A DNA stretch of 61,408 bases from Bacillota bacterium (GTDB lineage Bacteria > Bacillota > Clostridia > Lachnospirales > Lachnospiraceae), in assembly GCA_023663285.1 (NCBI GenBank), contig JAMPHT010000013.1:1-61408 (forward strand), written 5' to 3'. The first letter of the stretch is position 1. Every line of letters starts with the position of its first letter. The translations under genes and the position numbers were made by a program. Below the pieces are notes generated by a model, which worked only from the letters and a program-made list of their open reading frames with translations, did no database searches and had not been told where the DNA came from. Of this stretch, positions 59,085 through 61,408 are shown in pieces.

Positions 59085-59141
59085 CGCTCCGGGAACAAAT
59101 ATTCCAATACAAAATCAAATAAGAGAGGTTAGGTGTTGACT

Positions 59142-60353
59142 ATGAAGAAAAACCATTTCAAGCTTTTCGCAGGTATCCTGGCTATGTCGATCGTTCTGGG
59201 AGGCACAAGCATGACTGCTTTTGCAGCTGTACCAGACGGTTACGAATTTATTGAAGAAATCGTAGATTCTTGTGAGAGCGTAACATGTGAAGTATGTGGT
59301 GAAGTTATTATTATAAGTATATCTACAACCAAAGTTTATTACAATCAGGAAACTGGGGCGCGCAAAACTGTAGGTTGTGTAACAGCTTATAATGAGTCCG
59401 AAAAAATTATAGCTGAGCATAACGCTAAGCATAAAGCCGATGAAGAAGCAAGGATAGCCGCTGAGCAGAAGGCAGCCGAAGAGGCAAGGATAGCCGCTGA
59501 GCAGAAGGCTGCCGAAGAGGCAAGGATAGCCGCTGAGCAGAAGGCTGCCGAAGAAGCAAGGATAGCCGCTGAGCAGAAGGCAGCCGAAGAAGCAAGGATA
59601 GCCGCTGAGCAGAAGGCTGCCGAAGAAGCAAGGATAGCCGCTGAGCAGAAGGCTGCCGAAGAGGCAAGGATAGCCGCGGAACAGAAGGCTGCCGAAGAGG
59701 CAAGGATAGCCGCTGAGCAGAAGGCTGCCGAAGAGGCAAGGATAGCCGCGGAACAGAAAGCTGCTGAAGAAGCAAGGATAGCCGCTGAACAGAAGGCTGC
59801 CGAAGAGGCAAGGATAGCCGCGGAACAGAAGGCTGCCGAAGAAGCAAGGATAGCCGCTGAGCAAAAGGCAGCCGAAGAGGCAAGGATAGCCGCTGAACAG
59901 AAGGCTGCCGAAGAGGCAAGGATCGCCGCTGAGAAGGCTGCCGAAGAAGCAAGGATAGCCGCTGAGCAGAAGGCTGCTGAAGAGGCAAGGATCGCTGCTG
60001 AGAAGGCTGCTGCTGAGGCTGTTGAGGATGCAATGACGGAACTTGAGAAGATTGAGGCTCTTGCGAAGTTTGAGGCTGAAATGAAGGCGGGCGAAGATAA
60101 GCCCCAGACCTATTATGTCTGCAACTGCAGCGACCTTTTCATGACCAAGGACTATACTGCATTGAAGAAGCACATGATGTCCCATGCGCTCATGGGCCAG
60201 CCCAACAGCTATAGTGCGCACACCACCCAGCCGAGGTACTATTGCGACTGCGGTTACACCTCGCCCACAGTCTATAACATGGAGCTGCACATTGTGCTCC
60301 ATGAGAGCAGAGGTGAGCACTGCAGCTATGTTATCCGTTATCCTTATCATTAA
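59142..60353 (+). CDS. Secreted repeat protein with two terminal Cys/His motifs
   Basis: The 403-residue protein has a signal peptide (residues 1 to about 28, cleaved near AFA-AVPD) and an N-terminal domain with CESVTCEVCG. The middle has sixteen copies of EEARIAAE, mostly as 12-residue units with QKAA between (about residues 100-290), predicted to form a long single helix. The C-terminal domain has two similar Cys/His motifs: CNCSDLFMTKDYTALKKHMM and CDCGYTSPTVYNMELHIVLH. These look like C2H2-type zinc sites, unusual in an exported protein. No anchor or sorting motif is visible. ATG 59142 has GAGAGG 10 bases upstream. Confidence 0.75.
   Translation: MKKNHFKLFAGILAMSIVLGGTSMTAFAAVPDGYEFIEEIVDSCESVTCEVCGEVIIISISTTKVYYNQETGARKTVGCVTAYNESEKIIAEHNAKHKADEEARIAAEQKAAEEARIAAEQKAAEEARIAAEQKAAEEARIAAEQKAAEEARIAAEQKAAEEARIAAEQKAAEEARIAAEQKAAEEARIAAEQKAAEEARIAAEQKAAEEARIAAEQKAAEEARIAAEQKAAEEARIAAEQKAAEEARIAAEQKAAEEARIAAEKAAEEARIAAEQKAAEEARIAAEKAAAEAVEDAMTELEKIEALAKFEAEMKAGEDKPQTYYVCNCSDLFMTKDYTALKKHMMSHALMGQPNSYSAHTTQPRYYCDCGYTSPTVYNMELHIVLHESRGEHCSYVIRYPYH
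59442..60010 (+). repeat. 36-bp tandem repeat array in the coding region
   Basis: Sixteen units encode EEARIAAE plus linker; two units lack one codon (EKAA in place of EQKAA). Codons vary silently among units (GCC/GCT, GAG/GAA, GCGG/GCTG). The repeats are therefore old enough to have drifted, yet in frame and alike in protein. Copy number may vary between strains. Confidence 0.9.
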
Positions 60354-60369
60354 GTATCAGCATGGCCGT

Positions 60370-60401
60370 GACAGCAGGGATTTTCCCTGCTGTCCTTTTT
60401 T
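60370..60401 (+). terminator. Terminator of the repeat-protein gene
   Basis: GACAGCAGGGA (60370-60380) pairs perfectly with TCCCTGCTGTC (60384-60394), followed by C and six T. Confidence 0.95.
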
Positions 60402-60405
60402 CATG

Positions 60406-60440
60406 ACAATAGAATTCTCGCGAAGCGTGAATTCTATTGT
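60406..60440. repeat. Perfect 12-bp inverted repeat
   Basis: ACAATAGAATTC (60406-60417) and GAATTCTATTGT (60429-60440) with an inner CGC-GAA-GCG. It lies directly after the terminator. The following 60441-60578 shows no gene I can support. Confidence 0.7.
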
Positions 60441-60578: not shown

Positions 60579-60850
60579 CTGCCCGCCGTCCTGTTGTCGC
60601 ATCCCTGCCCCTGTCCGCTGTAATTTCGCAAAAATCACTGTAAATTATCCGATACCACTTGAAAAATCCTGCAAGTATGATAAAATACACATGGGTGTTA
60701 CTAAAACGGGTAGCGGTTCGCCTTTTGCCAAAATGAGTACATTTTGAGAGCTTCCATTACCGAAGGAGGGGATCCAAATGTGCGATACTCGCACATCGGA
60801 AAATAAAGCGAAAGGTAAGCACTATTTGGTGTTCGGAATCATTCTGGAGT
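60579..60850 (+). repeat. Direct repeat, copy 1 (leader plus small toxin-like gene)
   Basis: This stretch matches 61151-61408 closely over the whole shared length, with offset 572-574 bases. It includes CTGCCCGCCGTC, the promoter, the leader AAAATGAGTACATTTTGAGA, the ribosome site and the start of a small gene. It is a tandem duplication of a whole locus; copy 2 is cut by the window end. Confidence 0.9.
60659..60686 (+). promoter_or_regulatory. Promoter of the small hydrophobic peptide, copy 1
   Basis: TTGAAA (60659-60664), 16-base spacer, TAAAAT (60681-60686). Copy 2 keeps the same spacing. The leader of about 85 bases has GGTGTTAC (60694-60701) and CGGTTCGCCTT (60714-60724). The same two elements occur at the 5' end of the opposing RNA (complement of 61007-61014 and 60986-60996). 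Confidence 0.6.
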
Positions 60851-60960
60851 TTGTCGATATCGTAGTGACGGTTATCAGTATCATCGTCACAATTATAAGT
60901 ATCCGGCAGACCGAAAGAAATGAAAGACATCAAAAAAGCAACCGCGCTGACCAAAGTTAG
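60778..60960 (+). CDS. Small hydrophobic peptide, type I toxin candidate
   Basis: The 60-residue peptide has a short polar N-terminus, one strong membrane helix (about residues 20-42, FGIILEFVDIVVTVISIIVT) and a charged tail (RQTERNERHQKSNRADQS). GAAGGAGGGG precedes ATG 60778. Size, layout and genomic setting match Fst/TxpA/holin-like type I toxins, which damage the membrane unless an antisense RNA blocks expression. The same peptide is started in copy 2. Toxicity is inferred. Confidence 0.65.
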   Translation: MCDTRTSENKAKGKHYLVFGIILEFVDIVVTVISIIVTIISIRQTERNERHQKSNRADQS

Positions 60961-61022
60961 GTTGCTTTTCTGATAATCATCAACTAAGGCGAACCGTTGC
61001 TTTACGGTAACACCTTTTCTCA
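60932..61022 (-). ncRNA. Predicted antisense RNA opposite the toxin 3' end
   Basis: On the minus strand TTGACG (complement of 61052-61057), a 17-base spacer and TAGTAT (complement of 61029-61034) form a promoter pointing at the toxin gene. A transcript would start near 61022 and end at the hairpin AGCAACC/GGTTGCT (60937-60943 / 60960-60966), which is followed by six T on that strand. The RNA of about 90 bases would overlap the toxin mRNA 3' end by about 35 bases, the layout of RatA-type antitoxins. Confidence 0.55.
60937..60969. terminator. Bidirectional terminator shared by toxin and antisense RNA
   Basis: AGCAACC (60937-60943) and GGTTGCT (60960-60966) with A6 on the left and T4 on the right. 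The toxin stop codon (60958-60960) lies inside the hairpin. Confidence 0.7.
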
Positions 61023-61150
61023 TAAAGTATACTATCACTTATCAGCACTTTCGTCAACATTTTTTTACCTGTTGGATCCGGTATCTTGCATAAATTTTTC
61101 GTGATACCTGCTCCAAAATGCGTCACTTGCTCCCCCAAATTGGCTATGTG

Positions 61151-61408
61151 CTGCCCGCCGTCTCATTGCTGCATCCCTGCCCCTGTCCACTGTAATTTCA
61201 CAAAAATTGCCGTAAATTATCCGATACCGCTTGCAAAATCCTGTAAGTATGATAAAATATACATGGGTGTTACCAAAACGGGTAGCGGTTCGCCTTTTGC
61301 CAAAATGAGTACATTTTGAGAGCTTCCATTACCGAAGGAGGGATCCTACATATGGAAAATAAAGCGAAAGGTAAGCACTATTTGGTGTTCGGAATCATTC
61401 TGGAGTTT
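61151..61408 (+). repeat. Direct repeat, copy 2 (incomplete)
   Basis: Second copy of the locus at 60579, with promoter TTGCAA-16-TAAAAT, the same leader elements and ribosome site. The window ends 57 bases into the gene. Confidence 0.9.
61352..61408 (+). CDS. Small hydrophobic peptide, copy 2, partial
   Basis: GAAGGAGGGAT precedes ATG 61352, which opens MENKAKGKHYLVFGIILEF before the window ends. It lacks the CDTRTS insert found at the start of copy 1, giving a shorter N-terminus, but is otherwise the same up to the edge. Confidence 0.7.
   Translation, partial: MENKAKGKHYLVFGIILEF

What the first reader, a model, noticed from the sequence alone, without database searches (positions are those of the whole stretch)
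60579..61408. Tandemly duplicated type I toxin-antitoxin-like locus
Two copies, offset by about 573 bases, each carry promoter, conserved leader, ribosome site and a small single-helix membrane peptide. Downstream of copy 1 an opposing promoter (TTGACG-17-TAGTAT) drives a predicted RNA of about 90 bases ending in a hairpin shared with the toxin. The sense leader and the antisense RNA 5' end share two elements (GGTGTTAC and CGGTTCGCCTT), a detail I have not seen described for Fst/TxpA systems. The two peptides differ at the N-terminus, so the copies may have diverged in regulation.
Basis: partly seen in the sequence, partly recalled or inferred. Interest (0 to 1): 0.7.

Follow-up and report, generated by a model that had tools for sequence, protein, structure and literature searches.

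The report
Self-locking toxin messenger with antisense partner
A gut bacterium carries a repeated gene for a tiny membrane peptide, read against a short opposing RNA; comparison with many relatives suggests that the two ends of the peptide's messenger RNA pair with each other, a locking trick described before for other toxin systems, which would make this a new version of a known kind of bacterial self-toxin switch.

Summary
Two head-to-tail copies lie at the contig end. Copy 1 has promoter, conserved leader, Shine-Dalgarno and a 60-aa single-helix peptide whose stop codon lies in a two-way hairpin, opposed by a promoter for a ~93-nt antisense RNA. A model of that RNA hits 87 of 138 same-genus and 127 of 397 sampled family genomes. 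The peptide core is under purifying selection (pN/pS 0.33); no searched profile matches over its cut-off.

The "shared elements" are best read differently from the finding. mRNA and antisense 5' ends are alike because they form an inverted repeat, which lets the mRNA 5' end pair with its own 3' region (27 bp here). Support: two-sided compensatory changes at 7 of 21 pairs (0 of 500 shuffles); arm differences follow the G-U rule for the sense RNA (69 to 4, 95%; shuffled partners 64%); pairing is locus-specific. This resembles the 5'-3' lock of hok and AapA, not the direct repeats of Fst/par.

Toxicity, both transcripts and the lock's effect are untested. Its predicted effect on the ribosome site is modest, and absent in the window's own copy.

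The parts
60659..60686 (+). promoter-like site of the toxin mRNA, copy 1 (TTGAAA-16-TAAAAT, TG before the -10)
   Evidence: a similar -10 region recurs in relatives while flanking DNA differs (by eye, output partly cut)
60693..60702 (+). 5' strand of the long-distance helix, arm 1 (pairs with 61006-61015)
   Evidence: 6 of 10 pairs with two-sided changes
60714..60724 (+). 5' strand of the long-distance helix, arm 2 (pairs with 60986-60996)
   Evidence: 99.5% of cells paired, 1 of 11 pairs with a two-sided change
60729..60746 (+). conserved leader hairpin CAAAATG-AGTA-CATTTTG
   Evidence: 99.5% of cells paired, 1 pair with a two-sided change
60751..60769 (+). CTTCC (60751-60755), able to pair with the Shine-Dalgarno GGAGG (60765-60769)
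   Evidence: conserved; no two-sided change in this helix
60778..60960 (+). ORF of the single-helix membrane peptide, 60 aa, copy 1; upstream ORF and toxin fused in one frame
60779..60795 (+). palindrome that places the start codon in a predicted hairpin; 3 places in the genome, all at starts of copies of this element
   Evidence: contigs C4, C13, C60
60929..60974 (.). two-way hairpin T1: predicted terminator of the antisense RNA, also encodes the peptide's C-terminus and stop; terminator or exonuclease barrier in the sense direction (inferred)
   Evidence: two-sided change at one pair, L031/L032
60986..60996 (+). 3' strand of the long-distance helix, arm 2 (complement of the antisense RNA's 5' element)
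61006..61015 (+). 3' strand of the long-distance helix, arm 1
61015..61022 (+). T-rich tract after the 3' arm: possible second sense terminator T2 (inferred)
   Evidence: at least 5 T in 8 nt in 49 of 57 loci; 45 of 58 broad loci; no shuffled control
60929..61021 (-). predicted antisense RNA, about 93 nt
   Evidence: 106.7 bits with model R1; the window is in the model
61029..61057 (-). promoter-like site of the antisense RNA (TTGACG-17-TAGTAT)
   Evidence: recurs in relatives (by eye)
61151..61408 (+). copy 2: promoter 61231-61258, leader, Shine-Dalgarno, ORF from 61352, cut by the contig end; no palindrome

Best explanation
This is a chromosomal type I toxin-antitoxin-like module of Lachnospiraceae. 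Convergent promoters make (i) an mRNA for a small membrane peptide and (ii) a ~90-nt antisense RNA that ends in the hairpin overlapping the peptide's last codons. If the mRNA runs past that hairpin to about 61015-61022, its 3' region pairs with its own 5' end over about 27 bp and closes it. A shorter mRNA that ends at the hairpin, by termination or by 3' trimming, lacks the partner strand, refolds and can be translated unless the antisense RNA binds it. Shown by comparison: conserved two-promoter anatomy, selected peptide core, long-distance 5'-3' helix with sense-RNA polarity. Inferred: that both RNAs are made, that the peptide is toxic, that the antisense RNA is the antitoxin, that the long form exists and is inert, and how it is opened.
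For: Peptide relatives in 46 of 138 same-genus genomes and 43 loci with named records. Antisense RNA model R1 (E up to 0.01): 87 of 138 genus genomes, 127 of 397 sampled family genomes in 120 of 334 genera. Core pN/pS 0.33 over 51 ungapped sequences against 1.13 and 1.15 in the other two frames; 19-residue window of mean hydropathy 2.6. Long-distance helix on 53 sequences: 98.9% of cells paired, 7 of 21 pairs and 18 cells with two-sided changes, 0 of 500 shuffles; slid versions at most 47% paired. Arm differences: 69 of sense-wobble type against 4 of the reverse in 72 clusters, 24 against 1 in 22 clusters; fraction 0.94-0.97 against 0.64-0.66 with shuffled partners. Duplex energy of sense 5' with sense 3' -44.2 against -35.6 kcal/mol for the antisense mirror, better in 74 of 76 clusters, and -32.2 with partners from other loci. 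Two loci of one genome bin differ in the arm, yet each matches within itself (L059 and L064). T-rich tract fit for a second sense terminator in 49 of 57.
Against: No transcript, toxicity or processing data. The two-way hairpin has a U-tract in the sense direction too, so most sense transcripts may end before the 3' strand. Predicted Shine-Dalgarno exposure falls only from 0.45 to 0.33 on average in the long form (lower in 36 of 51), and rises from 0.18 to 0.28 in the window's own copy. The anti-Shine-Dalgarno helix is conserved without covariation. In the main family alone the arm polarity is 18 to 6 over all 57 loci, 11 to 1 over 23 clusters. Transversions between arms exist (19 in 76 clusters). 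13 of 72 loci lack the sense motif. Shared ancestry makes loci non-independent. A start-site study of three Clostridium species, and by its account an earlier one of C. phytofermentans, found few antisense starts (PMC9045289, passages); the passages seen say nothing on these loci.
Confidence: 0.68

Rival explanations
1. Fst/par-like regulation: the 5' hairpins of mRNA and antisense RNA exchange strands in trans (sense 5' arm with antisense 3' arm and the reverse) as the second contact after loop kissing at the shared hairpin; no long mRNA is needed.
For: Same overall layout as par pAD1 (convergent, shared two-way terminator). In the 67 distinct arm sets trans and cis hairpin energies are equal, -11.91 and -11.90, against -11.03 with other loci (300 shuffles).
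Against: The local hairpin that this reading needs shows no two-sided change in 53 sequences (457 of 500 shuffles pair at least as well). It predicts no G-U polarity between sense and antisense arms, yet that is strong. It predicts no matching at arm position 5, which I read as unpaired in the local hairpin, yet 62 of 67 match against 41 shuffled.
Confidence: 0.12
2. The anatomy is right but the peptide is not a toxin: a small membrane peptide with a signalling or regulatory role, controlled by antisense RNA and by the 5'-3' lock.
For: No toxicity data; no match to toxin models over their cut-offs; peptide relatives persist in 46 of 138 same-genus genomes.
Against: Antisense-controlled small hydrophobic peptides are the usual type I toxin form (abstract of PMC6563280 in the listing); deletion remnants in the own genome that keep antisense or leader but lose part of the toxin (L004, L005, L006) fit a costly product, though simple decay would look alike.
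Confidence: 0.15
3. The matching arms are a by-product of DNA exchange between inverted repeats (gene conversion or template switching), without RNA function.
For: Arms match within a locus and differ between loci of one genome bin.
Against: Exchange would copy bases exactly and also homogenise the middle; instead the differences are mostly of one wobble polarity and the middle stays different but largely G-U pairable.
Confidence: 0.03
4. A non-autonomous mobile repeat with terminal inverted repeats; peptide and RNA are incidental.
For: Several copies per genome, assembly breaks at them, deletion remnants.
Against: Peptide under purifying selection; promoter motifs recur on both sides outside the inverted repeats. 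No relative in the viral, plasmid and phage collections (the first reaches close relatives only). I made no search for transposases or target-site duplications.
Confidence: 0.02

Closest known systems
par of pAD1 (Fst / RNA I / RNA II) and par-like loci
   Same: Convergent promoters, shared two-way terminator, small membrane peptide with charged tail, leader structures around the Shine-Dalgarno (PMC7472228, Introduction read whole, other passages).
   Different: par has DNA direct repeats that make antisense complementary to the toxin leader; here the repeats are inverted, so antisense 5' equals mRNA 5' and the mRNA 5' end can pair with its own 3' region. The peptide has no proline, hence no PXXXG motif (motif).
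hok/Sok and aapA/IsoA
   Same: Toxin mRNA whose 5' and 3' ends pair, inert until the 3' end is removed (PMC6733600 passages; PMC8167048 passages).
   Different: Different bacteria and peptide; in AapA the 3' end carries the anti-Shine-Dalgarno itself, here the helix lies at about nt 1-32 and the Shine-Dalgarno is handled by the leader; truncation not shown.
txpA/RatA and Clostridioides difficile type I modules
   Same: Convergent toxin and antisense genes overlapping at their 3' ends (PMC6563280 and PMC8167048 passages).
   Different: No sequence match to the C. difficile model: NF047374 scored 14.8 bits against a cut-off of 60 for a typical form. The passages describe long complementarity; here about 45 nt if the mRNA is short. 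No TxpA sequence was compared.
E. coli Ldr long direct repeats
   Same: Tandem copies of a type I module (recalled; the 2002 paper's title appears in a reference list).
   Different: Taken to be unrelated in sequence (not compared); here up to three copies in a row in relatives.

Membership tests
[quoted passage not shown]
   best 19-residue mean hydropathy 2.63 (window), 2.84 (typed typical form); pN/pS 0.33
type I toxin-antitoxin system | antisense RNA gene opposite the toxin's 3' end | tested here: met
   sequence level only: model R1 hits and recurring promoter motif; transcript not shown
type I toxin-antitoxin system | peptide is toxic and antisense RNA neutralises it | not testable with these tools
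   needs expression experiments
par/Fst | convergent promoters and shared two-way terminator | tested here: met
   sequence level:
par/Fst | DNA direct repeats giving sense-antisense complementarity in the leader | tested here: not met
   repeats are inverted; polarity of arm differences is that of sense-sense pairing
par/Fst | Fst peptide with PXXXG motif | tested here: not met
   no proline in the 60-aa peptide
hok- or AapA-like locked mRNA | long-distance 5'-3' helix in the toxin mRNA | tested here: met
   by comparison only: covariation, polarity, energies; that the mRNA reaches the 3' strand is not shown
hok- or AapA-like locked mRNA | full-length mRNA inert, 3'-shortened mRNA active | tested here: inconclusive
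   predicted Shine-Dalgarno exposure 0.45 to 0.33, lower in 36 of 51; not in the window copy
hok/mok | overlapping upstream ORF coupled to the toxin (recalled) | tested here: inconclusive
   upstream ORF out of frame in 56 of 72 loci, stop overlapping an ATG of the toxin frame in 33; fused in frame in the window; upstream ORF shows no amino-acid selection (pN/pS 1.45)
Hol_Tox PF16935 | profile match over cut-off | tested here: not met
   not listed for the window peptide at E 10 nor for 8 peptides of this class at E 1; own-genome match over the cut-off lies elsewhere, C16
C. difficile type I toxin NF047374 | profile match over cut-off | tested here: not met
   not listed for the window peptide at E 10; 14.8 bits against 60 for the typed typical form
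Rfam families | gathering score | tested here: not met
   0 matches in the window; best below-threshold score in the region 22.5 bits against 56

The most novel reading that the evidence does not exclude
The locus belongs to an undescribed, family-wide class of type I modules in Lachnospiraceae in which several unrelated-looking peptides ride on one RNA chassis. The antisense RNA is a copy of the mRNA's own 5' end, and the chassis works as a self-closing switch: ribosomes that reach the peptide's last codons, which lie inside the two-way hairpin, prevent termination there, so the transcript runs on to the 3' strand and locks its own 5' end. Translation would thus feed back on itself, and the antisense RNA would compete for the same 3' strand with perfect instead of G-U-softened pairing.
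Probability: 0.25. Interest if true: 0.8.

Novelty: new variant of a known kind. Interest (0 to 1): 0.6.

Why it matters
If right, a 5'-3' locked toxin mRNA, which in the papers seen here was described for hok and for Helicobacter AapA, also exists in gut Firmicutes, in a large family of loci that the profile libraries tried here do not name. The covariation gives exact base pairs to mutate, so the old question of how toxin mRNAs stay silent while being made becomes directly testable in a commensal lineage. It also gives a search model for such loci.

Tried and rejected
Local hairpin between the two shared elements (GGTGTTAC with CGGTTCGCC), my first idea: it pairs in 98.1% of cells but with no two-sided change and no gain over shuffles; RNAalifold proposed part of it for the antisense RNA, so it may still form there. 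Trans exchange of the two 5' hairpins: kept as a rival. A shared binding protein: argued against by two loci of one genome bin with different arms that each match within themselves.

A site scan that used each locus's own antisense arm as query was exploratory and biased; counts use the later scan with a locus-independent profile. Rows dropped before counts: main family, 72 distinct loci, 57 kept, 13 without a motif on one side or both and 2 with an antisense arm the pattern did not accept (L022, L024); broad set, 107 rows (from 100 of the 103 broad loci), 84 with an antisense arm, 58 with a sense arm. Shine-Dalgarno folding: 57 loci, 6 skipped. Helix counts: 57 loci gave 55 distinct segments; L078 and the second L030 segment were left out of the alignment, 53 used; the same two were left out of the leader alignment, 49 of 51. 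Phage, plasmid and viral searches found no relative of the peptide. A pattern check of 6 weak class- or family-level hits and of the Hol_Tox locus printed no site and says nothing either way. Peptides on the broad loci (84 of 107 rows, my count of its list) were chosen by hydropathy without a shuffled control; some are doubtful. Literature: ten paper searches that ran (open-licence PMC papers only) showed no description of this family in the listings; subscription papers were not searched. Papers opened: PMC7472228 (passages, outline, Introduction), PMC6563280, PMC9045289, PMC6733600, PMC8167048 and PMC5608710 (passages only).

Full report
WHAT IS THERE. The last 830 bases of the window hold two direct copies of one element (192 nt at 92%, offset 572; 55 nt at 100%, offset 556). 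Copy 1 is complete; copy 2 is cut by the end of the contig (the window is the whole contig C4). The two copies differ at the peptide's N-terminus because copy 1 has a 17-bp palindrome just after the A of its start codon; this palindrome occurs at 3 places in the genome, all at starts of copies of this element.

COPIES IN THE OWN GENOME. DNA search of the own genome found 11 matching pieces: the two copies on C4, a complete copy on C60 (88%), deletion derivatives on C13, C54 and C19, and one weak 28-nt piece elsewhere in the window. The C54 derivative has lost the front half of the peptide but keeps an intact antisense RNA (104 bits). C4 ends inside a copy, C54 ends in a second antisense promoter region, and the C60 match starts about 110 bases from a contig end, so the element probably breaks assembly.

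RELATIVES. The peptide has relatives in 46 of 138 same-genus genomes (E up to 0.1) and at 43 loci of named records, titled mostly as Lachnospiraceae or genera of it and apparently from gut samples (titles such as Muribaculaceae may be binning errors). None was found in viral contigs, plasmids or phages. No Pfam, NCBIfam or Rfam model matches over its cut-off, and the best PHROG has E 0.038. Among 72 distinct loci the sense motif was found in 59 and the antisense motif in 70, with recurring promoter motifs and unrelated flanks (by eye, output partly cut). The peptide core is under purifying selection: pN/pS 0.33 over 51 sequences, against 1.13 and 1.15 in the other frames of the same DNA.

UPSTREAM ORF. 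In 56 of 72 loci the ORF that starts after the Shine-Dalgarno (typically MENKVKGKHYWCSE) is out of frame with the peptide; in 33 of them its stop overlaps an ATG of the peptide's frame (ATGA). That would suit translational coupling. The upstream ORF shows no amino-acid selection (pN/pS 1.45, 44 sequences). In the window and 9 other loci the two are fused in one frame (8 plain starts plus the window and L002); a third palindrome locus, L033, has an internal stop; 5 loci had no recognisable start.

THE ANTISENSE RNA. 68 antisense sequences were aligned and made into model R1. R1 (E up to 0.01) hits 87 of 138 genus genomes and 127 of 397 family genomes drawn evenly, in 120 of 334 genera; at E up to 0.001 it hits 28 of 391 class genomes, 8 of them of the own family and the other 20 weak, 33-48 bits, and not verified. 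The weaker family hits sit opposite other small hydrophobic ORFs ending at or near the hairpin: 84 of 107 rows by a permissive hydropathy pick without a control. Among them are peptides of the form MSDYELLTVVLMILGIIVSILIAYINHTKK, one of which lies in the own genome on C22. Two of that form did not match Hol_Tox.

WHY THE TWO 5' ENDS ARE ALIKE. In 57 main-family loci the sense and antisense 5' arms deviate from consensus 29 and 28 times, 19 times with the same base at the same place; shuffled partners share 2.1 on average, at most 9 in 20,000. L059 and L064 come from one genome bin and have different arms that each match within the locus. In the broad set the match persists: 115 loci, 67 distinct arm sets, 8.19 of 9 positions identical against 6.68 shuffled and 7.27 when shuffled only among loci with the same sense 3' arm.

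POLARITY. Where the arms differ, the sense arm mostly has T and the antisense arm C, or sense G and antisense A: 70 such cases against 6 of the reverse and 19 transversions in 76 clusters. With clusters at 85, 75, 65 and 55% similarity the counts are 69:4, 51:3, 35:1 and 24:1, fractions 0.94-0.97; with partners shuffled the fraction is 0.64-0.66, at most 0.74 (2,000 shuffles each). Counted as distinct changes per cluster at 65% they are 58:8 with 18 transversions. The main family alone gives 18:6 over all loci and 11:1 over 23 clusters. Composition therefore explains part of the skew but not all. These are the differences that stay paired through G-U if the sense RNA 5' arm pairs with the complement of the antisense arm, which is the sense strand's own downstream region. 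The mirror pairing in an antisense transcript would break at the same places. Accordingly the sense 5'-3' duplex averages -44.2 kcal/mol, its antisense mirror -35.6, and pairing with another locus's partner -32.2 (200 shuffles, best -34.1); the sense duplex is the more stable in 74 of 76 clusters. In the window it is -41.9 with 27 pairs.

COVARIATION. On a 53-sequence alignment of the whole sense segment the 21-pair helix is formed in 98.9% of cells, with two-sided changes at 7 pairs and in 18 cells; none of 500 shuffles reaches this, and slid versions pair at most 47%. The competing local hairpin has no two-sided change. Leader helices around the Shine-Dalgarno and the two-way hairpin have 7 pairs and 12 cells with two-sided changes, 0 of 500. 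The anti-Shine-Dalgarno helix is conserved; the single two-sided change in that test belongs to the leader hairpin counted with it. Related sequences can exceed such shuffles without structure, so the polarity result weighs more.

HOW IT MAY WORK. The 3' strand lies beyond the two-way hairpin, so the helix needs an mRNA that runs on. A T-rich tract follows the 3' arm in 49 of 57 main and 45 of 58 broad loci, in the main family behind a weak local hairpin (mean -9.0), and could be a second terminator; an A-rich antisense 5' end alone would give the same tract. Thus a long, closed form and a short, open form are plausible, as for aapA and hok, where the full-length mRNA is inert and 3' removal activates it (PMC6733600, passages; PMC8167048, passages). 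Folding gives mixed support: mean Shine-Dalgarno exposure 0.45 in the short and 0.33 in the long form, lower in 36 of 51 loci, clear in L064 (0.72 to 0.26), reversed in the window (0.18 to 0.28). The palindrome at the window's start codon may take over that role. The hairpin encodes the peptide's last codons, so ribosomes could oppose termination there; this is inference only.

AGAINST KNOWN SYSTEMS. The layout is that of par pAD1 (convergent promoters, shared two-way terminator; PMC7472228, Introduction read whole, other passages). par uses direct repeats, which make the antitoxin complementary to the toxin leader; here the repeats are inverted, which makes the mRNA complementary to itself. 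par RNA I also hides its 5' end in an upstream helix; the text seen here (passages of PMC5608710, a plasmid Lactobacillus par-like system) places it at the 5' end, and I did not read the original study, so part of the novelty rests on that. I file this as a type I-like module of a new variant, not as a member of par, hok or AapA.

LIMITS. Everything is comparative. Loci share ancestry; clustering reduces but does not remove this. Loci without recognisable arms were dropped as stated under Tried and rejected. Start-site maps of related clostridia reported few antisense starts (PMC9045289, passages); these loci are not mentioned in the passages seen.

Noticed in passing
59133-60353: ORF of 406 aa with a signal-like start and a long run of 12-aa repeats (EEARIAAEQKAA), then a C-terminal part with several cysteines; a strong terminator-like hairpin follows at 60370-60394.
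   Followed up: no
60406-60440: 16-nt inverted repeat, 94% complementary (ACAATAGAATTCTCGC / GCGTGAATTCTATTGT), between the terminator and the finding; function unknown.
   Followed up: no
L005 (own genome C54), 1520-1612: Deletion derivative that lost the toxin's front half but keeps an intact antisense RNA (104 bits): a possible orphan antitoxin acting on the intact copies.
   Followed up: partly
L164 (own genome C22:55417-55507): A second member of the wider RNA class in the same genome with a different peptide (MSDYELLTIVLMILGIIVSILIAYIEHTKK) and arms GGTACTGCC / GGTCAGTCC matching in sense and antisense.
   Followed up: partly
G000:C16:19818-19886 (L229): A Hol_Tox (PF16935) match over the cut-off in the own genome, not among the listed hits of the antisense model; relation to this class not established.
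   Followed up: no
L058, L195: Three head-to-tail copies about 424 bases (L058) and 465 bases (L195) apart; genome G057 has 12 hits of the antisense model.
   Followed up: no
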